Below are positions 17,193 to 29,467 of a stretch of 64,000 bases of DNA, one piece after another. Position numbers and translations under genes: made by a program. Location: positions 2,232,001-2,296,000 of the forward strand of contig NZ_CP024903.1 of NCBI RefSeq assembly GCF_003330765.1, written 5' to 3'. This DNA comes from Burkholderia pyrrocinia. GTDB taxonomy: Bacteria > Pseudomonadota > Gammaproteobacteria > Burkholderiales > Burkholderiaceae. The notes under the pieces were generated by a model, which did no database searches, was not told where the DNA came from, and saw nothing but the letters and a program-made list of their open reading frames with translations. The first letter of the stretch is position 1; every line of letters starts with the position of its first letter.

Positions 17193-17897
17193 TTAAAGAG
17201 AAGCGCCGCCGCACATAACGACTTGTTGTCCGGTGATTGCGCCTGCGCTTTCGCTCAATAAGAAAGTCGTGAGCGCCGCCACCTCTTCAGGAGCGATGAA
17301 GCGTCCAATCGGCGGTAGTTTCGGCGGCGTTGCGGCACGCCCAGGATCGCGAAGAAACGGGGTGTCCGTGGCGCCTGGGGCCACCACGTTCACGGTGATG
17401 CCACGCGGCGCCAATTCTGCCGCCCAAGACCTGGCCAGGCCAATCAAAGCCGACTTGGTCGCGGCATATTGGCTACGTCCAGCAGCGCCGTTTGCAGTTC
17501 GACTACCGACTAATACAATCCGCGCACCGTCTGGCATCCTGGCAATCAACCGGTCGGCGAGAAACATCGCAGACTCGACGTGCAGGCGCCACATCCCCGC
17601 CGCATCGTCGGTTGACAGGTGACCAAGCTGTGCCGTGCGCATAAACCCCGCTGCATGCACCAACCCGTCCACCGGACCGAGTTCATCGCAGACAGACGCG
17701 AGCGCGTCGAAGTCTGTGATGTCGACCGGGACGATTCTCAAAGCATCGTTGGTCTCGGCAACCTGCGACCGGCAGAGTCCAGTTACCCGCCAACCGTCAG
17801 ACAGCAGACGCTCAACGATTGCCCGGCCGATGCCCGAGGAGGCGCCGGTCACTACTGCATGACGCAATGCGGCGCTAGACTGCTCCGATGTATCCAC
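17193..17897 (-). CDS. Short-chain dehydrogenase/reductase (SDR)
   Basis: This classical SDR of 234 residues has the cofactor motif TGASSGIGRA (about residues 17-26), LVHAAGF (NAG-like, about 82) and the catalytic Ser and YAATK (about 145). The C-terminal ITGQQVVMCGG is typical of the 3-oxoacyl-reductase-like branch. The Arg after the first strand (LCRSQV) suggests NADP(H). It is the last gene of the minus-strand catabolic cluster, 14 bp after the DeoR regulator. It may oxidise or reduce the hydroxy-acid substrate of the pathway. The stop is close to the left edge of the low-G+C segment. Confidence 0.85.
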   Translation of the reverse strand: MDTSEQSSAALRHAVVTGASSGIGRAIVERLLSDGWRVTGLCRSQVAETNDALRIVPVDITDFDALASVCDELGPVDGLVHAAGFMRTAQLGHLSTDDAAGMWRLHVESAMFLADRLIARMPDGARIVLVGSRTANGAAGRSQYAATKSALIGLARSWAAELAPRGITVNVVAPGATDTPFLRDPGRAATPPKLPPIGRFIAPEEVAALTTFLLSESAGAITGQQVVMCGGASL

Positions 17898-17911
17898 GAT
17901 GGCTCCCGCTG

Positions 17912-18715
17912 CTATTGGACCGGCAAAGACCCGTCAGTTGAGGTTGCAGGTTTGACAGTGACTGCGCGAACGGTGATGCGCTCTAGGGCGTGGAATGGTT
18001 CGAGTTGCTCATGCTGCGCCGCATCGTCAGTAATTAGCGTCCAGCTGCGTTCCAATGGAGTCCAGTGTTGCTGACTTGCGCGTCCAAGCTTGTCGGCAGT
18101 GACCAGGACAAATAGATGGGCCGCCTGTCGCATCACGCATTCCTTCAAATACGACTGCTCGCTACTTGCCTCGCACAAACCGAGTTCAGCGACCACGCCG
18201 TCAGCGCCGAAGAACGCCTTGTCGACACTAAGACGGCTTAGTGCAAGTTGCGCCAGCGGCCCAAGCGTGCTCATGCTCGTCGACCGAACCTCGCCTCCAA
18301 TAACCGTCACGTTCACTCCCGATGCGACAAGTGGACCTACCACCAAGAGATTGTTAGTCACGACATGCACCGTGGTCCGGCCGGACAGCAGTCGGGCAAG
18401 GGCCGCCGTCGTTGTCCCACCGTCCAGGAACACCGTGTCGCCATCTTCGACGAACGTGCTTGCCGCTTGTGCAATCGCTTCCTTCTGCACCTGAGAACTG
18501 ACTCGGCGCTCTTCGAGCGACGGCTCACGCTCGTGGGAGCCGACCGCAGCAGCACCGCCGTACGTGCGAAGAATACGGTTGTCGCTTGCAAGAGCGCGCA
18601 AATCGCGACGGACAGTTGCTTCCGACATACCAAAGTGCTCGCATAGCGTCGCAACGTCCGTCATCCCACCCAACACTGCCTGCAGCATCGCCTCCCGGCG
18701 CTTGGTCACTTTCAT
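17912..18715 (-). CDS. DeoR-family transcriptional regulator
   Basis: This 267-residue protein has an N-terminal helix-turn-helix (RREAMLQAVLGGMTDVATLCEHFGMSEATVRRDLRAL reads as the DeoR motif) and a C-terminal DeoRC sugar-phosphate sensor domain. The latter shows FLDGGTTTAALARLL, VVTNNL and the FFGADGV segment. DeoR proteins usually repress a catabolic operon until a phosphorylated intermediate binds. Here the likely effector is the acid-sugar phosphate made by the DUF1537 kinase. The ATG at 18715 (MKVTKRREAML) fits the family length; an upstream extension in frame was rejected. It is embedded between the BNR protein and SDR genes. Confidence 0.9.
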   Translation of the reverse strand: MKVTKRREAMLQAVLGGMTDVATLCEHFGMSEATVRRDLRALASDNRILRTYGGAAAVGSHEREPSLEERRVSSQVQKEAIAQAASTFVEDGDTVFLDGGTTTAALARLLSGRTTVHVVTNNLLVVGPLVASGVNVTVIGGEVRSTSMSTLGPLAQLALSRLSVDKAFFGADGVVAELGLCEASSEQSYLKECVMRQAAHLFVLVTADKLGRASQQHWTPLERSWTLITDDAAQHEQLEPFHALERITVRAVTVKPATSTDGSLPVQ

Positions 18716-18819
18716 GTGCGTGTATTCTTGGTCGATTCGAGTTCGCGCTTGCGTTCGCGCGGCCTGACCACCAAGTTTATCCGCTCCCCCTGGCGACTGT
18801 CGATTTGCGCCGGAAAGGC

Positions 18820-20007
18820 TCATCGACCGCGAACCCACGATTCGTCGATGCATACGTACTTAATCTTCTGGCGGAACCACGTGAATGCGATGTGCAGCGC
18901 GCCGTCTTTTGATTGCACGATGGACGGGTAGGAGTATTCGCGATTGCGCTGGTCAGCGGAGTTGTTCGTCATGCAATAACCGTCTCCGATTTCCAGATTG
19001 CGCCGACGCCGCCATGTTTTGCCACCGTCTTCGGAAATTGCAAGAGACATCGGTGCGCGAGGCGCGCCCCAGAATGCGGTTCCGCGCTCGGAGGCCTTCT
19101 GGTCACGCAACTCACCGCTGTCCTCCGAATCCTCGATGTCGTCATACAGAGAAGCCCGACGCTCCTTGCTGTGCGATGCGTCGCTTTCGTTGAAAACGAG
19201 CGCAAGATGACCGTTGTTCAACACCGTGAATTGAACAGACGAGTTGTTGTTCGGAACCTCGGTGGGCTGCGGAGTGCTCCATTTTCGGCCGTCCGTCGAG
19301 CGGCTCGAGTACACGAAGTCGGCCCAGCGGCTGCGGTAGAGCGCCAAGAGTGAGCCATCCTGCAGAACATGGACGTTCATGTGAACGCATCCGACGCTCT
19401 CCGGGACCTCATGCAGCGTCCACGACGCACCTTGGTCATCGGACGCCATGACCGCACTGACGTCGTTGTTGCCGACCCAGCGTTCGCCCGGTTCCGTGCG
19501 GCACTGGAAGACGGGACAAATCCAGGTGCCACTTTCGAGAAAGATAATCGGTTGCCGGACGAAGGTTCCCGGACTATCGAACAGCGTTTCGACCGGACCC
19601 CACGTGTAACCGCCGTCCGTCGAGACTCGACGGCGGACAATTGCGGTGTTTTGATGCCCGGACAACTGCGCTGTATAGATTAGCCACAGGCGACCGTCGG
19701 GTGCCGAAAAGAGCACGGGGTTCTGTTCAGAGCGCGTCGGGTCATCCGAGAGCTTCAGGGGCGCCGACCATTCCTCAGTCCCCGCTGCCAAACGCGACAT
19801 GTAAATCGATACGTCCGGGATACCTTCCTGCGTGCCGCCGAACCACACGCACAGCAAGTCGCCGTTGTCGAGGCTATGCAGATTCGCGGCGTGGTTCTGG
19901 ACGCAAGAAGTCGGGAGGAAAGCTTCCTTTCGTTCTGCGTCGGCGTAGGCCGTGCGGACGCAATTGTCCTGGGCCGTGTTGGCATTCTCAATCCTGCTCG
20001 AGTTCAT
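18820..20007 (-). CDS. BNR/Asp-box sialidase-fold protein, apparently cytoplasmic
   Basis: The 395 residues form a predicted six-bladed propeller. Four Asp-boxes are visible: STDGGYTW (about 142), SDDQGASW (about 205), STDGRKW (about 255) and SEDGGKTW (about 345). The N-terminal part HAANLHSLDNGDLLCVWFGGTQEG matches the predicted-neuraminidase branch (BNR_2). The usual sialidase FRIP arginine motif is at best represented by FVRQP. No signal peptide or lipobox is present (start MNSSRIENAN), so the protein should act inside the cell on an imported compound, unlike secreted sialidases. It lies 25 bp after the symporter gene. Glycosidase or isomerase-like activity is possible; the substrate is unknown. 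Confidence 0.8.
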   Translation of the reverse strand: MNSSRIENANTAQDNCVRTAYADAERKEAFLPTSCVQNHAANLHSLDNGDLLCVWFGGTQEGIPDVSIYMSRLAAGTEEWSAPLKLSDDPTRSEQNPVLFSAPDGRLWLIYTAQLSGHQNTAIVRRRVSTDGGYTWGPVETLFDSPGTFVRQPIIFLESGTWICPVFQCRTEPGERWVGNNDVSAVMASDDQGASWTLHEVPESVGCVHMNVHVLQDGSLLALYRSRWADFVYSSRSTDGRKWSTPQPTEVPNNNSSVQFTVLNNGHLALVFNESDASHSKERRASLYDDIEDSEDSGELRDQKASERGTAFWGAPRAPMSLAISEDGGKTWRRRRNLEIGDGYCMTNNSADQRNREYSYPSIVQSKDGALHIAFTWFRQKIKYVCIDESWVRGR

Positions 20008-20032
20008 GATGTATATCCGATGTTCTTTGCGG

Positions 20033-21457
20033 TCAGTGCGATTCACGATGCGTGAGACGCTTGTTCTGGATGTCTGAATCTTCTGATGCACCGTGGAACA
20101 GGAGCTTGCTCAAGACCAGGACGATTGCCGGCGTGACAAGTGCGACATACATGTTGTCGATGCCGAACGGGTTGCCAAGCAGGTACCAAGCCGTCGTAGC
20201 GAGCGTGGCGAGCACCAGGCCCCAGATTGCGGCACGCTTGCCACTGAAGAACGGCATGTAGATACCAATCAGCGCAACAACCGACACAGACAGGCGAAGT
20301 GCACGGGTGAAGAACGACAGCGCGAGAATTTTCGGAGCGAACAGGACGAAGACCAGCGGGAGGAAACCGACCGCCAAGGAAATCCAGCGCGTCATACGGA
20401 ACTCAAGTTCCGGGGAGGGGTTGAATCGCGGCACATAGAAATCCTTCACAATCAGCGAGGCGATTGCGAGTGCGACCGTGCAGACGCTCACGAAGATTGA
20501 CGCTACAAGCGAGGTCGTGACGATGCCTGCCAGGACGGGGTTCATGTGCTGGAGGAACACCGGCAGCGCATACAGGCTCTTGATGTTCGGGTACAGATAC
20601 TTGGCGGTCACGCCAAGGAAGCCGAGCGCCAGTGCGATGGGCAAACACAGGAATGCTGCCATCAACGAAGAAGCGCGCGCGCCTTCAGGACTCTTGGTCG
20701 CGGAAATGGCTTGAATAATAAACTGCGTCGAGAAAATCGCGCCGGCCGTACCAATAATCCATGCACCAATCGTACCGCCCGACAGCGAGCCGGACCACGT
20801 GAAGTAGTGCGCGGGCATGCTTTGCACCATCGGCTTGATGCCGCCGGAGAGGTTCCAGGCCACAGCCACCAGAATCCCGATACCAAAAATCTTGACGGCA
20901 CTATGAATAATCGTCAGATAGGCGACGCTCTTCAGGCCGCCCCAGACGAAGTAGATGGTACTGACAACTGCCGTGATGATTGCAGCCGTGGTCAGGTCGA
21001 TGTGCATGACAGTGGAGATTGCTGCGGCACCGCTGACATAGTTGCCCACATTCACAAGGAAGAGTGCATAAATCATGATGGCTGAAACGACCAGCTTTGC
21101 GCCTTTGCCATACCTCTTCGCGATAAAACCGGAGATTGTGAACTCGCCCGATGAATACAGGCGCTTGGCCATGAAAAGGCCAAAGAAAAGGAAGCCGATT
21201 GACGCCGAAACGACTGACCAAGACGCAGCCATACCCGCTGAAAACGCTTCCTGCGACGTTCCAACCGTCGATTTCGCACCGATGAACTCCGACATCAGCA
21301 GGATGGCGACGACCACCGCAGGCATCGAGCGCCCCGCCACCATGAACTCGCCGGTATTCTTGCTGCGCAGACGAATGCTGAGCAGGCTAGTAACTAAAAT
21401 ATAGGCGACGACCATGCCAATGATGATGGCGGTATCCCAGTAACTGAAGGTGGTCAT
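20033..21457 (-). CDS. Sodium:solute symporter (SSS family)
   Basis: This 474-residue integral membrane protein has about 13 hydrophobic helices. SSS signatures include FMVAGRSMP and SEFIGAKSTVGTSQEAF near TM2, and the Na+-site region around YFVWGGLKSVAYL. Family members import sugars, sialic acid, pantothenate, proline or carboxylates with sodium. Its place between the BNR protein and the PdxA2-type gene makes it the uptake system for the cluster's substrate. The ATG at 21457 is preceded by a GGAG site. A longer open frame up to 21574 adds a non-conserved, charged N-terminus and is not used. Confidence 0.9.
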   Translation of the reverse strand: MTTFSYWDTAIIIGMVVAYILVTSLLSIRLRSKNTGEFMVAGRSMPAVVVAILLMSEFIGAKSTVGTSQEAFSAGMAASWSVVSASIGFLFFGLFMAKRLYSSGEFTISGFIAKRYGKGAKLVVSAIMIYALFLVNVGNYVSGAAAISTVMHIDLTTAAIITAVVSTIYFVWGGLKSVAYLTIIHSAVKIFGIGILVAVAWNLSGGIKPMVQSMPAHYFTWSGSLSGGTIGAWIIGTAGAIFSTQFIIQAISATKSPEGARASSLMAAFLCLPIALALGFLGVTAKYLYPNIKSLYALPVFLQHMNPVLAGIVTTSLVASIFVSVCTVALAIASLIVKDFYVPRFNPSPELEFRMTRWISLAVGFLPLVFVLFAPKILALSFFTRALRLSVSVVALIGIYMPFFSGKRAAIWGLVLATLATTAWYLLGNPFGIDNMYVALVTPAIVLVLSKLLFHGASEDSDIQNKRLTHRESH

Positions 21458-21570
21458 AGCTTGTCTCCAAATAGCCTTCGGTTGATGCGCGTCAGGTTGC
21501 ATTGAGCCACCCGGCATGTTCCTGCCGGTGTCGCTCGGTGCTTTGTCCTTGCGTGTCTTTCGCCAAACGT

Positions 21571-22596
21571 TCACATGTCGCTGGTCGCCGGTGATTGCTC
21601 GGTGCGTCGGGTAGCCAGTTCAAGAGCCTGCTTGAACGCCTCCAGCATGCTGCGTTCGTCAGCGATACCCGTCCCAGCAATGTCAAACGCGGTGCCGTGG
21701 TCCACCGAAGTGCGGATGACGGGCAAGCCAACGGTGACGTTCACGCCTGCTTCCAGGCCCATGACCTTGACCGGTCCGTGTCCCTGGTCGTGGTACATCG
21801 CAACCACCACATCGAAGTCGCCCCGGCCGGCGCGGAAGAACAAGGTGTCGGCAGGAAGAGGACCTTCCACATCCCAGCCGCGCTCCTGGAGTACCTTCAC
21901 TGCCGGGATAATTTTTTCCTCTTCCTCTCCGTACCCGAAGAGACCGTTCTCGCCTGCGTGAGGATTGATGCCGCAAACGCCGATGCACGGATTCGAGATG
22001 CCGGCACGTACGAGCGTTTCATGAGCGCGCTCAATCGTGCGTTGGACAAGGCCCGGTTCAATTTTGCGAATCGCGTCAAGCAGACCGATGTGCGTCGTCA
22101 CGTGAATGACTCGTAGATTGGGCGCGACAAGCATCATTGACACTTCTTCGATGCCCGTCAGGTGAGCGAGCATTTCAGTATGTCCAGGGAAAATGTGGCC
22201 GCCAGCGTGCAGAGCTTCCTTGTTCAGCGGCGCCGTGCAGATGGCGTCGAGTTCGCCTTTGGTGGTCAACTCGACCGTACGGGCGATGTACTGATACGCG
22301 GCGTCGCCCGCTACAGACGAAAGTTTTCCATACGGGAGGTCCGCCGGAATCAGCTTCATGTCGATGCAATCGACAACGCCGTGTTTGAACTGGCCCTCAG
22401 ACGGCTCATTGATTGCCCGCACGTCCAGACTTACGCCGGCTCGACGGCCGGCATCACGCAAGCGAGCGGCGTCACCGATGACTACCGGGCGGCATTGCTC
22501 GTACACCGAGGCGTGAGCCAGGCTCTTCATGATGATTTCCGGACCGACACCGGCTGCATCGCCCATGGTGATGCCGATAATGGGACGGTTGTTCAT
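21571..22596 (-). CDS. pdxA2: PdxA2-type 4-phospho-threonate/erythronate dehydrogenase (decarboxylating)
   Basis: This 341-residue member of the PdxA family starts MNNRPIIGITMGDAAGVGPEI. Metal-binding histidines are visible in PGHTEML (about 139), NPHAGE (about 210) and YHDQGHG (about 266), and the substrate loop is TAPLNKEALHAGG. True PdxA makes vitamin B6, but a PdxA next to a DUF1537 kinase is the known signature of four-carbon acid-sugar degradation. There, D-threonate 4-phosphate (or an isomer) is oxidised and decarboxylated to dihydroxyacetone phosphate with NAD+. The kinase gene lies 12 bp upstream. The pair therefore defines the core chemistry of this cluster. Which four-carbon acid is used remains open. 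Confidence 0.88.
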   Translation of the reverse strand: MNNRPIIGITMGDAAGVGPEIIMKSLAHASVYEQCRPVVIGDAARLRDAGRRAGVSLDVRAINEPSEGQFKHGVVDCIDMKLIPADLPYGKLSSVAGDAAYQYIARTVELTTKGELDAICTAPLNKEALHAGGHIFPGHTEMLAHLTGIEEVSMMLVAPNLRVIHVTTHIGLLDAIRKIEPGLVQRTIERAHETLVRAGISNPCIGVCGINPHAGENGLFGYGEEEEKIIPAVKVLQERGWDVEGPLPADTLFFRAGRGDFDVVVAMYHDQGHGPVKVMGLEAGVNVTVGLPVIRTSVDHGTAFDIAGTGIADERSMLEAFKQALELATRRTEQSPATSDM

Positions 22597-22608
22597 AGCT
22601 GGATTCCT

Positions 22609-23886
22609 TTACACGTTTGCTTGAGCCGTATTGGCCGTCTTGCTTTTATCAGCGAGCCAACGCCATGCGTTGTAGAGTGACTCGGGTTGGCCAAAGCCAC
22701 CCGCCTTGGTAACTACCGGCAGCGCTCTCCCACCAAGATGACACGCGAGAAGAGGCATACCGTCTTCAATTTCTTCAACGACATGCAGGGCACTTGCGCC
22801 GGCTTCGCCGAGAAGCGCACGCGCCGTCTCTCCACCGGTAGCGATGATTCCCCCGGCAATGGGCACAGCCGGAGCCAGCAAGGAAGCAAGACGCCCGCAG
22901 AAGCGCAATCCATCATTCACATCGCCCCGGTTCGTTTGACTTAACGACACCACGACATGTTGTCCTCGACGAAGCGCTTCACATACAACCGTCGTGAAGT
23001 CGGCATCGAGCGTTTCGAGCGCGGAGGTGGCAACTTCAAGAGCGAGAAGGTTGTCGCCAGCATTCGCCTTCAGACAGTCCAGTTGAGCATGCGACACGCT
23101 CGACATGCTGCCCACTACGGTGAGTACCGGGCCACCCGTTGCTTCGTCGCTTTTCGTCACTTCAGAAGCGTGTCGGCTCAGCTTCAATGCGTCCATCACC
23201 GCCGACGCGAGACCGGCCGACCCAACCCAAAAGACTTTCTCGAGCTGAGCAGACGCACAAGCGATAAGCCGCAGGTCGTCGTCCGTTTCCGCATCGCAAA
23301 CGACGGCCTGCACGCCATCCATTTGCATCTGTTTCATCTGCCTCGCGAGCGCATCGGCCTCAATGCGGACTGCGTCGATTGAAATGTGACCCACCTTAAG
23401 TTCTTCACCGGACAGCATTGCAACGAGGTCTGCCTTGCCCAAAATGCCTTCATTGCGCCAGAACTCGCTTTCCTCGACTGCAACGCCTCGTACCCACTGA
23501 CGCCCGTCACGCGTGGTGCGACCGGCTACCGGGTAAGCAGGACAGAAAACGGCCATTCCGATACGTGAAACGAGAGCCGCTACCTCAGGAGCGAAGTTGC
23601 CTCGCACAGTCGAATCCATCTTCTTGTAGACCCGCGTGCCAACGCGACCAAGCGCATTCACTGCAACCACGTTACGTTGCGCGGCTTCCTCCTTCGACGC
23701 GCGGCGTGAGTCCAGGTCGACGGCAAGGACCTCAACGTTCGCCGTTGAAGTCGGAGCACCGTTCGTGTCGAGCAGCACCATGGCTTGCAAGCCGTGCCGA
23801 AGTCCTGCGACGGCGCAATCGGCAGCGCCAGAAAGGTCATCGGCGACAATCAGAAGCTGCGCTTGGTCGTGCGTGGCAGAATTCAT
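22609..23886 (-). CDS. DUF1537 four-carbon acid sugar kinase (threonate/erythronate kinase type)
   Basis: The 425 residues show the N-terminal substrate domain beginning LLIVADDLSGAADCAVAGL (about residues 11-30). The C-terminal nucleotide-binding domain contains GGIIATGGETARALL (about 345) and a closing GGFGQPESL. Characterised members (D-threonate, L-threonate, D-erythronate and 3-dehydrotetronate kinases) phosphorylate the 4-hydroxyl with ATP. It partners the downstream pdxA2. The start ATG overlaps the stop of the alcohol dehydrogenase gene by 4 bp (ATGA), showing translational coupling. Stereospecificity cannot be read by eye. Confidence 0.88.
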   Translation of the reverse strand: MNSATHDQAQLLIVADDLSGAADCAVAGLRHGLQAMVLLDTNGAPTSTANVEVLAVDLDSRRASKEEAAQRNVVAVNALGRVGTRVYKKMDSTVRGNFAPEVAALVSRIGMAVFCPAYPVAGRTTRDGRQWVRGVAVEESEFWRNEGILGKADLVAMLSGEELKVGHISIDAVRIEADALARQMKQMQMDGVQAVVCDAETDDDLRLIACASAQLEKVFWVGSAGLASAVMDALKLSRHASEVTKSDEATGGPVLTVVGSMSSVSHAQLDCLKANAGDNLLALEVATSALETLDADFTTVVCEALRRGQHVVVSLSQTNRGDVNDGLRFCGRLASLLAPAVPIAGGIIATGGETARALLGEAGASALHVVEEIEDGMPLLACHLGGRALPVVTKAGGFGQPESLYNAWRWLADKSKTANTAQANV

Positions 23887-25049
23887 GGCAGCAGACGGCT
23901 GTAGATGGACTTCATGTCGTCGAGGGTAAGTGTCTTCGGATTGTTGCCAAGAAGGCGCTTCACCTTCGATGCTGCTTCAGCGAGTGCGTCGAGATGTTCT
24001 TCCGACACACCAAACTTGCGCAGGTCCTGAGGAATCTCGACTGCCGCAGTCCACTCCTCCATCTTGTCAATCAACTTTTGCGCCGCGATCTGGTCCGACT
24101 CGGCTTTGGTCGCAAGGTCGAGAGCGCGTGCCACGTTGGCGAGTCGGTCCTCAATGGCGTCTAAATTGAAGGCCATCACGTGCGGGAGCAGCATGGCATT
24201 TGCGACACCATGCGTGACGTTGAACATGCCACCCAAGGGATAGGCCAGCGCGTGAACAGCGGCGGTACCTGCAGCGGTAAGTGCGAGCCCACCGTACATC
24301 GAGCCCAGCATCATTGCCTCACGCGCCTTGAGCGAATTACCGTTCTCGTACGCTTCAACGATGTTGGCTCCAATCAGTCGCATCGAGTCCATCGCGAACA
24401 TATCGCTGATGGGATTCGCCTTGGTGGAGATGTACGACTCCAGCGAGTGAACGAATGCGTCCATGCCGGTGGCTGCCGTAATGGGCTTCGGCAGGCCGAG
24501 AGTGAGTTCGGCGTCCAGAATTACGATTTGAGGCAGGAGGTGACGGCTGACGATGCCGACCTTCAGGGACTCATCCGGCAGCGTCACGATCGCGTTCGGG
24601 GTAACCTCCGAACCCGTGCCAGCGGTTGTCGGGACCAAAATCATCGGCACGCCAGGCTTTTTGATGAGATCGATGCCGAGCCAGTTTCGCAGCGGTTCGT
24701 CGTTTGTGAGGCGAACCGCGAAGAGCTTGGCAGCGTCCAGCACGCTTCCGCCGCCGATGGACAGAATTGCCTGAGGAGCGAAGGGCTCGATTTGCTCCTT
24801 AAAGACCGTCTCTACATTTTGGATGGTCGGCTCAGGTTCGACGTCGCGGACAATGCGTACTTCGACTTCCTTCGACTTGAGCAATTCAATCACGCGACCG
24901 ACGATGCCAAGGTCTTCCATGATGGGCTGCGTGATGAGCGCGATGCGCTGAACCGGCGTGTCGAGCAACGACAGCTTTTCGGGGAGTTCATTGAGGCTGC
25001 CGGCACCATGAATAATGTGCTTGACCGTCTGGAAGTGGTAAGTTGCCAT
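23883..25049 (-). CDS. Iron-containing (group III) alcohol dehydrogenase
   Basis: This 388-residue protein has the NAD(P) motif IGGGSVLDAAK (about 98) and the PTTAGTGSEVTPNAI segment (about 138). Metal ligands lie in TGMDAFVHSLE (Asp about 197, His about 201) and NVTHGVANAMLLPHVM (His about 266 and about 280). Family members reduce small aldehydes or oxidise alcohols and hydroxy acids. In this cluster it may handle the aldehyde released by the DapA-like lyase, or oxidise a precursor of the four-carbon acid. The ATG at 25049 has an AGGTG site 7 nt upstream; a GTG three codons earlier is possible. It overlaps the kinase gene by 4 bp. Confidence 0.88.
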   Translation of the reverse strand: MATYHFQTVKHIIHGAGSLNELPEKLSLLDTPVQRIALITQPIMEDLGIVGRVIELLKSKEVEVRIVRDVEPEPTIQNVETVFKEQIEPFAPQAILSIGGGSVLDAAKLFAVRLTNDEPLRNWLGIDLIKKPGVPMILVPTTAGTGSEVTPNAIVTLPDESLKVGIVSRHLLPQIVILDAELTLGLPKPITAATGMDAFVHSLESYISTKANPISDMFAMDSMRLIGANIVEAYENGNSLKAREAMMLGSMYGGLALTAAGTAAVHALAYPLGGMFNVTHGVANAMLLPHVMAFNLDAIEDRLANVARALDLATKAESDQIAAQKLIDKMEEWTAAVEIPQDLRKFGVSEEHLDALAEAASKVKRLLGNNPKTLTLDDMKSIYSRLLP

Positions 25050-25067
25050 GCTGTTCACCTGTTTCAG

Positions 25068-25955
25068 TTACTGCGCGTCACGGTAGATGGAGAGCGCTTG
25101 GGACAGCCGCTCACGGGCACTCGCGTCAAGGGGTTGAGCGGGAGCGCGCGCAGGACCGGCCGGCATTCCAAGCATCTGCGCCGCAGTCTTCAGAACGACC
25201 GGCATCGTACCCAGCGCGAAAGCGTCTCGAAGCGCACGGAGCGACTCCTGTGCAGCACGTGCGCCGGCGACATCGCCCGATTGAAACTTGTTCCAGATGG
25301 ACATCACGACGTTGGGGACAGCGTTCGTCGTCGCGGCCACCGCGCCGTCGCCACCCGCAATCAACGTCCAGAGAATCATCGAATCCGTACCGGTGAACAC
25401 AGCGAAGTCGTCGCGGCGAAGGTTGATGAGTTGCAGCAGACGGTCGAAGTCGCCACCGCTGTCTTTGATGCCGCGAATGTTCGGAATCTCCGACAGGCGG
25501 CGCACGGTATCGACGCTCAACGTGATGCCGGCTTTGGCCGGAATCGTGTAGAGCATGACCGGCAGCGGCGTTGCCTCAGCAATCTTCTTGTAGTGGGTGA
25601 AGAGTTCCAGCTGCGTCGCACCATTGAAGTACGGTGTAATGACTGAGACGGCATCGACGCCAACATCGACCATCTTCTGATTGAGATTGATGACATCGCG
25701 CGTGGCGTAGGCGCCAGTACCCGCGATGACGGGCACGCGCGAACGGGCTTGATTGACCGCAATGCTTGCGATGCGCAGCTTCTCTTCTTCGCTCAGCGCA
25801 ATGAACTCGCCATTGGTGCCAAGCACAAAGAGTCCGTGCACGCCCGACTCGATGAGTCGCTCGATAAGTTCGCGCAGGCCGTCCTCATCGATGCTCTCGT
25901 CCGCCGTCATCGGCGTAATCAGAGCGGGAACGATTCCTTTGAACGAAATAGACAT
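25068..25955 (-). CDS. DapA/NAL-superfamily lyase, not a true dihydrodipicolinate synthase
   Basis: The 295 residues match the (beta/alpha)8 N-acetylneuraminate lyase superfamily. They show the pyruvate-binding GTNGE (46-50), the Tyr of MLYTIP (Tyr136) and the Schiff-base Lys of RGIKDSGG (Lys164). True dihydrodipicolinate synthase has an Arg in a PxRTG-like loop after the Tyr; here the loop reads IPAKAG, so lysine synthesis is unlikely. A 2-keto-3-deoxy-acid aldolase or dehydratase role is more probable. It is now the first intact gene of the cluster. A GGAG site precedes the ATG. It lies 18 bp before the alcohol dehydrogenase gene and 59 bp after the porin remnant. Confidence 0.85.
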   Translation of the reverse strand: MSISFKGIVPALITPMTADESIDEDGLRELIERLIESGVHGLFVLGTNGEFIALSEEEKLRIASIAVNQARSRVPVIAGTGAYATRDVINLNQKMVDVGVDAVSVITPYFNGATQLELFTHYKKIAEATPLPVMLYTIPAKAGITLSVDTVRRLSEIPNIRGIKDSGGDFDRLLQLINLRRDDFAVFTGTDSMILWTLIAGGDGAVAATTNAVPNVVMSIWNKFQSGDVAGARAAQESLRALRDAFALGTMPVVLKTAAQMLGMPAGPARAPAQPLDASARERLSQALSIYRDAQ

Positions 25956-26014
25956 GCTTACTCCATCGCTGAAGGGAAGACGTTGATTTCATCTTTCCCT
26001 TGTGTTGTTAGCGG
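25956..26014 (-). promoter_or_regulatory. Leader of the cluster with a small inverted repeat, no clear promoter
   Basis: On the plus strand AAGGGAA-GA-(13 nt)-TC-TTTCCCTT forms a stem around the short gap between porin remnant and lyase gene. No -35/-10 pair is seen, so the first gene probably relied on transcription coming from the now-deleted porin promoter. Confidence 0.4.
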
Positions 26015-26200
26015 TTAGAACTTGTGTCGCAGACCAATGGCCGCCACGACCTGATGGTCATTGCTCGACGCGGTCATGGGCCACAGCGCGGCCGTCGCCG
26101 TCTTGCCCGTTGAGTCAATCCCGCTCGCGTCCTGATAGCCTGCTGTCAGGTAGACGTCGGTCCGCTTCGAAAACGAAGTAGTCAACGCCTGCTCGTTTCA
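26015..26200 (-). pseudogene. C-terminal remnant of an OmpC-like trimeric porin
   Basis: Translated on the minus strand, the last 60 codons include SKRTDVYLTAGYQDASGIDS and end in NDHQVVAAIGLRHKF before a TAA. This is the typical closing pair of beta strands of Burkholderia porins, with the terminal Phe that outer-membrane assembly needs. The frame is closed upstream by a stop at 26198-26200, and no earlier porin sequence exists before the IS element. About 300 codons and the promoter are therefore missing. The porin was presumably the first gene of the catabolic operon and the outer-membrane entry for its substrate. Confidence 0.85.
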
Positions 26201-26331
26201 ATCACTTAAAATTGATCGATGCGTGCATTCTAGCCGTATTCCTGACAAAATCAGTCAATGAAAACTGTCAAACGCATTTGAAATCTGAGCCACTTCGCGC
26301 CTGATCGCGCAAAGTAAAACTGAGCCAGTCG

Positions 26332-28130
<1,799 letters not shown>

Positions 28131-28222
28131 CGCCAGCCTTTGCGCGCAAAAGGCTGACTGTACTGAAAGGTGGCTCAGATTTACTTCGCGCGAAGTGGCT
28201 CATTATTACTTTGCGCCCAACA

Positions 28223-29391: not shown

Positions 29392-29467
<76 letters not shown>

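What the first reader, a model, noticed from the sequence alone, without database searches (positions are those of the whole stretch)
17193..26014. Low-G+C catabolic cluster combining four-carbon acid-sugar enzymes with a cytoplasmic BNR protein and a DapA-like lyase
Seen: eight minus-strand genes (lyase, Fe-alcohol dehydrogenase, DUF1537 kinase, PdxA2, SSS symporter, BNR/sialidase fold, DeoR, SDR) with 4-bp couplings. Known: DUF1537 plus PdxA2 degrades threonate/erythronate-type acids to DHAP. Inference: the known pathways do not need a BNR propeller, a DapA-like lyase and an alcohol dehydrogenase. The cluster may therefore take apart a larger imported compound (for example a glycosylated or longer aldonic or keto-deoxy acid). 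The BNR protein would release it, the lyase split it, and the four-carbon part pass through kinase and PdxA2. I know of no described pathway with this set.
Basis: partly seen in the sequence, partly recalled or inferred. Interest (0 to 1): 0.78.

Follow-up and report, generated by a model that had tools for sequence, protein, structure and literature searches.

The report
Predicted pathway for keto-deoxy sugar acid
A block of eight neighbouring bacterial genes, kept with changing parts in many soil- and plant-associated bacteria, looks like an undescribed route for eating an acidic seven-carbon sugar such as one found in plant cell walls.

Summary
The eight genes are there (17193-25955, minus strand, 58.7% G+C against 66-67% around). 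The set is co-conserved: of 96 loci holding a BNR relative (41% identity or more), 81 also hold a DapA-family lyase, a DUF1537 kinase, a PdxA paralogue and a reductase within 10-12 kb, in Beta-, Gamma- and Alphaproteobacteria and Bacillota. Importers vary (SSS, TctABC, Opp-type ABC, CitMHS), as does the reductase (Fe-ADH; GarR-like in six halomonad-type loci). In Pectobacterium the cluster's kinase and PdxA pass the curated D-threonate kinase and D-threonate-4-phosphate dehydrogenase cut-offs; the window's own do not. Best reading: the lyase splits a 7-carbon 2-keto-3-deoxy diacid into pyruvate and a 4-carbon semialdehyde, the reductase makes D-threonate, kinase and PdxA give DHAP. Dha, an acid sugar of pectin RG-II and algal scales, fits carbon count, charge and stereochemistry. 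The BNR protein has a sialidase fold, no apparent signal peptide and perhaps an altered catalytic set. The enzyme families are known; ten library searches found no such pathway. No activity was measured; the substrate is inferred. New variant of a known kind.

The parts
25068..25955 (-). DapA-family class I lyase (predicted 2-keto-3-deoxy acid aldolase)
   Evidence: PF00701 E 5e-80; Tyr136, Lys164 and Thr47 invariant in 29 cluster lyases; 28-34% to five paralogues elsewhere in the genome
23883..25046 (-). iron-containing alcohol dehydrogenase (predicted semialdehyde reductase)
   Evidence: PF00465/PF25137; Asp196, His200, His265, His279 invariant in 25 cluster members; missing, with a GarR-like enzyme present, in six halomonad-type loci
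22609..23886 (-). DUF1537 four-carbon acid sugar kinase (predicted D-threonate 4-kinase)
   Evidence: PF07005/PF17042; best NCBIfam model D-threonate kinase, 185.3 bits, under its cut-off of 450
21571..22596 (-). PdxA paralogue (predicted D-threonate-4-phosphate dehydrogenase giving DHAP and CO2)
   Evidence: PF04166 E 3e-107; D-threonate-4-P dehydrogenase model 332.7 bits, under its cut-off of 583; in one open frame with the kinase in 30 of 75 loci
20033..21457 (-). sodium:solute symporter (SSS), predicted importer
   Evidence: PF00474; other loci have TctABC, Opp-type ABC or CitMHS genes instead
18820..20004 (-). BNR_2 / sialidase-fold protein, no signal peptide apparent by eye
17912..18715 (-). 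DeoR-family regulator
   Evidence: PF08220/PF00455
17193..17897 (-). short-chain dehydrogenase (accessory, role unassigned)
   Evidence: PF13561; a match in 60 of 81 complete loci
26018..26173 (-). C-terminal remnant (52 codons) of a porin; a porin gene of that kind precedes the lyase in relatives
   Evidence: tblastn 77-79% to L007/L010 porins; family 22 in 17 of 87 loci, in 16 of them just upstream of the lyase
26186..26265 (-). upstream segment resembling the DNA before the lyase in L003-L006
   Evidence: blastn 74-77.5%; no sigma-70-type promoter match in 25950-26330

Best explanation
The cluster is a catabolic operon for a seven-carbon 2-keto-3-deoxy sugar diacid, most likely Dha (3-deoxy-D-lyxo-2-heptulosaric acid, found in pectin rhamnogalacturonan II and in scales and theca of some green algae). 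The compound, or a small glycoside or internal ketoside of it, is imported by the SSS symporter. The cytoplasmic sialidase-fold BNR protein frees or opens the ketosidic ring. The DapA-family lyase splits the open acid by retro-aldol cleavage into pyruvate and a four-carbon acid semialdehyde (D-threuronate). The Fe-alcohol dehydrogenase reduces this to D-threonate, DUF1537 phosphorylates it at O4, and the PdxA paralogue oxidises and decarboxylates it to DHAP. It is the one-carbon-longer analogue of galactarate/glucarate catabolism (aldolase, tartronate semialdehyde reductase, glycerate kinase; recalled). Shown here: gene set, co-conservation, predicted BNR fold, conserved catalytic residues of lyase, ADH and PdxA, and D-threonate assignment of kinase and PdxA by curated models in the Pectobacterium cluster. 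Inferred: every reaction in the window's own enzymes, the substrate, the direction of the ADH, the BNR reaction. Unassigned: SDR.
For: Co-conservation: 81 of 96 loci, down to 41% BNR identity in Subdoligranulum L145; two BNR relatives at 26-29% (L146, L147) lack the four enzymes; 20 control stretches of 20 kb from the window's own genome hold no match at E 1e-3 to lyase, ADH, kinase, PdxA, SSS, BNR or DeoR. Eight-gene colinear order in 26 of 80 loci. D-threonate: Pectobacterium L054 kinase 615.7 bits against cut-off 450, PdxA 682.4 against 583, Dickeya L066 PdxA 682.7; the L054 kinase aligns over all 437 residues with PDB 4xfm/4xgj at 853 bits; the D-threonate kinase model beats the 3-oxo-tetronate kinase model in all 6 cluster kinases tested. 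Kinase and PdxA in one open frame in 30 of 75 loci with both on one strand. Reductase role: in 6 halomonad-type loci Fe-ADH is missing and a GarR-like gene stands beside lyase, kinase and PdxA; the L036 one is NAD_binding_2/11 with tartronate semialdehyde reductase as best model, below cut-off. Keto-deoxy acid: a DUF386 (YhcH-type) gene in 24 of 87 loci (one checked), in 20 of these just after BNR; YhcH is an anomerase giving an aldolase the open form of Neu5Ac (PMC8141875, passages). Acidic substrate: TctABC (L036) and CitMHS (L145) occur where SSS is absent. DHAP: triosephosphate isomerase genes in 5 of 96 loci. Dha occurrence: PMC12282258, PMC6811678, PMC10762512 (passages). Stereochemistry worked out by hand: D-lyxo C5/C6 give D-threonate.
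Against: No activity data. The window's own kinase and PdxA fall well short of the D-threonate equivalog cut-offs (185 of 450; 333 of 583), and so do the Rhizobium, Azospirillum and Subdoligranulum ones and the halomonad kinase tested. The window lyase passes the curated dapA cut-off (242 against 206). Ten of 96 loci have BNR without any of the four other enzymes nearby, five more are partial. The 80 nearest loci are many Burkholderiales and Pectobacterium, so counts are not independent. Fe-ADH could oxidise rather than reduce. A pectin gene near the cluster was seen once (GH28 in L081), but neighbours were not systematically annotated. TctABC and CitMHS importers suggest a monomer, which makes a glycosidase role for BNR less obvious. 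The D-xylo epimer of Dha would fit equally.
Confidence: 0.5

Rival explanations
1. The lyase makes pyruvate plus a C2 or C3 aldehyde that Fe-ADH reduces to a waste diol, while a separate D-threonate or erythronate moiety (ester or glycoside partner) goes through kinase and PdxA. The compound is then a conjugate opened by the BNR protein.
For: Fe-ADH models matching the window protein include lactaldehyde reductase (278 of 523 bits); the PDB lists YagE (2-keto-3-deoxy-galactonate aldolase) among lyase relatives; sialidase fold.
Against: A GarR-like gene in place of Fe-ADH, whose best models act on acid semialdehydes, is not expected; it needs two unrelated moieties in all lineages.
Confidence: 0.17
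2. The core is an ordinary D-threonate utilisation operon; BNR, lyase, Fe-ADH and SDR serve unrelated or only loosely related acids.
For: Kinase and PdxA are sufficient for D-threonate (known pathway, recalled; curated models).
Against: 81 of 96 BNR loci keep lyase, kinase, PdxA and a reductase together across phyla; unrelated genes would not be kept.
Confidence: 0.08
3. Substrate is a sialic-acid-like or Kdo-like monocarboxylic ulosonate; the lyase product is a longer sugar handled elsewhere, and kinase/PdxA act on a shortened C4 acid.
For: Sialidase fold, DUF386 anomerase relatives, SSS symporter.
Against: N-acetylneuraminate lyase models score 153-171 bits, below cut-offs of 281-382; I saw no aminosugar-catabolic enzyme among the annotated neighbours listed; Kdo or Neu5Ac cleavage does not give C4.
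Confidence: 0.13
4. The BNR protein is not a glycosidase but a mutarotase or an enzyme opening an internal (anhydro or lactone) ring for the lyase, the rest of the pathway as in the best explanation.
For: No apparent signal peptide; several importer families, some of monomer type; usual catalytic Glu position aligned with an invariant His while a Tyr is kept; NanM and YhcH show that such helpers exist (PMC8141875, passages).
Against: DUF386 occurs beside BNR in many loci, so anomerase function would be doubled there; alignment to PDB sequences is weak (about 21 bits).
Confidence: 0.35

Closest known systems
D-threonate catabolism (DtnK kinase plus PdxA2; DUF1537 work of Zhang et al. 2016, seen only as a citation in PMC10580937; paper itself not held)
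   Same: same two enzyme families; the Pectobacterium cluster members pass both curated models
   Different: here accompanied by a lyase, a reductase and a sialidase-fold protein, so D-threonate would be an intermediate
D-glucarate/galactarate catabolism (GarL aldolase, GarR tartronate semialdehyde reductase, GarK kinase; recalled)
   Same: logic: keto-deoxy diacid, aldolase, semialdehyde reductase, kinase; a GarR-like gene is present in halomonad-type clusters
   Different: DapA-type aldolase, mostly Fe-ADH instead of GarR, C4 instead of C3 product, PdxA step to DHAP
Sialic acid catabolism (NanA lyase, YhcH anomerase; PMC8141875, passages; SSS transporter recalled)
   Same: DapA-family lyase, SSS, DUF386 in part of the loci, sialidase fold
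   Different: lyase below NanA cut-offs; kinase and PdxA point to threonate
GH143 Dha hydrolase of Bacteroides thetaiotaomicron (PMC6811678, passage)
   Same: sialidase-like propeller acting on Dha
   Different: GH143 is described there as five-bladed and acting on RG-II; the cluster protein is apparently cytoplasmic and its listed structural matches are sialidases; GH143 itself was not compared

Membership tests
D-threonate kinase (NF047819) | curated score cut-off 450 bits | tested here: not met
   window kinase 185.3; Pectobacterium cluster kinase 615.7, met
D-threonate 4-phosphate dehydrogenase (NF002891) | curated score cut-off 583 bits | tested here: not met
   window PdxA 332.7; L054 682.4 and L066 682.7, met
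PdxA superfamily (TIGR00557) | cut-off 290.35 bits and conserved His ligands (role recalled) | tested here: met
   368.6 bits; His169, His213 invariant and His269 with one exception among 29 cluster members
DHDPS-type class I lyase (PF00701) | Pfam cut-off; Schiff-base Lys and Tyr (roles recalled) | tested here: met
   268.7 bits; Lys164 and Tyr136 invariant
DapA, lysine biosynthesis (TIGR00674) | curated cut-off 206.15 bits | tested here: met
   242.1 bits; but eleven further family matches lie elsewhere in the genome, the Rhizobium cluster lyase scores 141.7, and the second Thr and the Arg of DHDPS (recalled positions) are Asn48 and Lys141 here
Group III Fe-alcohol dehydrogenase | Asp and three His metal ligands (recalled) | tested here: met
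   Asp196, His200, His265, His279 invariant in 25 cluster members
GH33 exo-sialidase | sialidase fold with Asp boxes | tested here: met
GH33 exo-sialidase | catalytic Tyr/Glu pair | tested here: inconclusive
   Tyr359 aligns to a Tyr of 9eob, but His208 aligns to a Glu of NanB/NanC (recalled as the catalytic one); alignments of 6-21 bits
GH33 exo-sialidase | hydrolysis of alpha-sialosides | not testable with these tools
   needs assay

The most novel reading that the evidence does not exclude
This is the catabolic route for Dha, the seven-carbon keto-deoxy diacid of rhamnogalacturonan II and algal scales, spread over several bacterial classes, with a new intracellular sialidase-fold enzyme that uses His in place of the usual Glu. 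It was re-assembled repeatedly from different subfamilies of the same enzyme families.
Probability: 0.35. Interest if true: 0.8.

Novelty: new variant of a known kind. Interest (0 to 1): 0.6.

Why it matters
If right, it gives a role to a sialidase-fold family often annotated as exo-alpha-sialidase or predicted neuraminidase in bacteria (315 plasmid records hold a match at E 1e-5, distant ones included), corrects dapA and pdxA annotations, explains how D-threonate can arise inside cells, and makes the fate of Dha from plant cell walls and algae testable with five purified enzymes.

Tried and rejected
Ordinary lysine and vitamin B6 genes: rejected as the main reading, since other family members sit elsewhere in the genome and the set is co-conserved. 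SDR and SSS as the invariant core: suggested by the 80 nearest loci, rejected when eight rhizobial loci showed the other five enzymes with an Opp-type ABC importer and no SSS or SDR match. An SDR plus FAA-hydrolase route to tartrate: among 87 loci the FAA hydrolase matched only in four Azospirillum ones, plus a weak match in L142, so not general. The ten loci with BNR but none of the four enzymes: the nine genomes tested (L039 not tested) each hold a DUF1537 gene somewhere, but of twelve short loci (2.2-3.7 kb) around such genes only L130 shows kinase, PdxA and Fe-ADH together (L123 has a weak GarR-like match, L126 a TctA match); unresolved. Independent origins of the lyase: the tree shows deep groups (one branch of 4 changes per site) but does not rule out one origin, and its only outgroups were five paralogues of the same genome; the cluster PdxA proteins outside the window's type are 42-52% identical to the window's, closer than its two paralogues (35-40%), which does not favour independent recruitment of PdxA. 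GH143 is not among the 50 rows listed, which is no evidence either way. Promoter scan upstream of the lyase: nothing. One literature search returned 111,159 papers and was useless. The PNAS 2016 paper on DUF1537 is not held.
Full report
What is there. Eight minus-strand genes fill 17193-25955 in the order lyase, Fe-ADH, DUF1537 kinase, PdxA, SSS, BNR, DeoR, SDR (transcription right to left). The block has 58.7% G+C against 66.2% and 66.8% in the flanks, and only 6 of 65 genomes of the genus, the window's own included, hold the BNR gene at E 1e-50, so it looks acquired. The genome has 8.0 Mb in three contigs and other members of the kinase, lyase and PdxA families. Upstream of the lyase lies a 52-codon porin remnant. 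A gene of that porin family occurs in 17 of 87 related loci, in 16 of them just upstream of the lyase. An IS21-type element follows. A segment at 26186-26265 resembles the DNA before the lyase in L003-L006.

Is the set real. A scan of public genomes with the BNR protein found 272 relatives, of which the best 80 loci were kept. Among these 80, DapA matches in 68, DUF1537 in 65, PdxA in 70, Fe-ADH in 60, SSS in 66, SDR in 64 and DeoR in 63; 41 have all eight, and 26 keep all eight in the window's order and strand. The 80 are the nearest relatives, many of them Burkholderiales, so counts are not independent events. I therefore added 5 plasmid loci and 11 more, mostly more distant ones. Of these 96, 75 hold BNR, lyase, Fe-ADH, kinase and PdxA, and 81 if a GarR-like reductase is allowed for Fe-ADH. 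Of the 15 others, ten show none of the four, and five (L016, L030, L063, L072, L090) are partial, three of them on short contigs. BNR relatives at 26-29% identity (L146, L147) lack the set. As background, 20 stretches of 20 kb of the window's own genome hold no match at E 1e-3 to seven of the eight proteins; the SDR matches in 3 of 20. Other genomes were not used as background.

The parts change, the reactions stay. In 28 loci compared with the window, those outside the window's own type have BNR 42-66% identical, while their lyases are 27-43% identical (64-72% in three halomonad-type loci); 11 of 21 such lyases are no closer than the 28-34% of five paralogues in the same genome. Kinases fall to 24-30% (33-43% in five loci) against 23% for a paralogue; PdxA stays at 42-52% or more against 35-40% for two paralogues. 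A tree of 34 lyases shows deep, well-supported groups, but a single origin is not excluded. Among the 81 complete loci the importer match is SSS in 61 (with an OppA match too in three), OppA alone in 8 rhizobial ones, TctA in 7 and none of these in 5; of the five, L145 has a CitMHS gene, L138 a TctC and L050 an Nramp-family gene before the lyase. TctC, TctB and TctA were checked in L036. In six halomonad-type loci Fe-ADH is missing and a GarR-like gene stands with lyase, kinase and PdxA. The one scanned (L036) is NAD_binding_2/NAD_binding_11; its best model is tartronate semialdehyde reductase, below cut-off (182 against 341-397 bits), with L-threonate dehydrogenase at 150.

The lower half of the pathway. 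In Pectobacterium (L054) the kinase of this cluster aligns over its whole length with the solved protein 4xfm/4xgj at 853 bits and passes the curated D-threonate kinase model; its PdxA passes the D-threonate 4-phosphate dehydrogenase model, as does Dickeya's. The window's own two enzymes and those of Azospirillum, Rhizobium and Subdoligranulum, and the L036 kinase, fail these cut-offs; the D-threonate kinase model is still the best one for all six kinases. Kinase and PdxA lie in one open frame in 30 of 75 loci with both on one strand (three of the 30 spans are shorter than a full fusion), one of them annotated as a single protein of 768 aa. Triosephosphate isomerase genes lie in five of the 96 loci (four confirmed by Pfam), two of them (L046, L070) lacking the other four enzymes nearby. 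Together this points to DHAP as product and D-threonate as the four-carbon intermediate.

The upper half. A DapA-type lyase with the Schiff-base Lys and Tyr can split 2-keto-3-deoxy acids to pyruvate and an aldehyde. To reach D-threonate by a reductase, the aldehyde must be a C4 acid semialdehyde, so the substrate must be a C7 diacid with a keto-deoxy end. Worked by hand, cleavage of 3-deoxy-D-lyxo-2-heptulosaric acid (Dha) between C3 and C4 and reduction of C4 gives D-threonate; only the D-lyxo and D-xylo isomers do so. Dha is known from RG-II (PMC12282258 and PMC6811678, passages) and from prasinophyte scales and Tetraselmis theca (PMC10762512, passages). This suits carriers such as Pectobacterium, Dickeya, Pantoea, Herbaspirillum and rhizobia on one hand and halomonads on the other, though habitat was not tested. 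A DUF386 family gene occurs in 24 of 87 loci by all-against-all BLAST, 20 of them just after BNR (one direct tblastn query found 17 of 87; one member checked by Pfam). It fits, since YhcH opens the ring of Neu5Ac for its aldolase (PMC8141875, passages).

What is known. Ten searches of the held library showed no paper on such a pathway in their listings (one search was too broad to count). I read passages of seven papers, none whole. Most subscription journals are not held, so this is not proof of absence. A 2026 GWAS in Sinorhizobium lists four-carbon acid sugar kinase and dihydrodipicolinate synthase family genes on pSymB (PMC12904279, passages); whether they are this cluster was not checked.

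Verdict. The reaction order is moderately supported, the substrate is a specific testable guess.

Noticed in passing
window 26286-28216: IS21-type element: istB 26332-27105 and istA 27102-28130, with 21-bp inverted repeats, 90% complementary (26307-26327 / 28196-28216).
   Followed up: partly
window 26018-26173: Porin reduced to its last 52 codons, with an upstream-like segment 26186-26265 retained; two related porins matched nothing else in the window at E 1.
   Followed up: partly
window 29392-29467: tRNA-Met beside the low-G+C block and IS element, a possible island boundary.
   Followed up: no
L089:6097-8403: Kinase and PdxA annotated as one 768-aa fusion protein in Caballeronia sp. SBC2; similar open frames in other loci, most of them Burkholderiales.
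   Followed up: partly
L007:12900-14066, L010, L033, L043, L078, L139: A mandelate racemase/enolase-superfamily gene stands next to or near the SDR or BNR genes in a few loci; role unknown.
   Followed up: no
L091:13236-13997: FAA-hydrolase family gene between BNR and SDR in four Azospirillum loci.
   Followed up: partly
L081:4638-6047: GH28 (polygalacturonase family) gene about 2.4 kb before the SSS-BNR-SDR genes in Pantoea rwandensis.
   Followed up: no
L050:4331-5692: Nramp-family membrane protein directly before the lyase in a locus without SSS or TctA.
   Followed up: no
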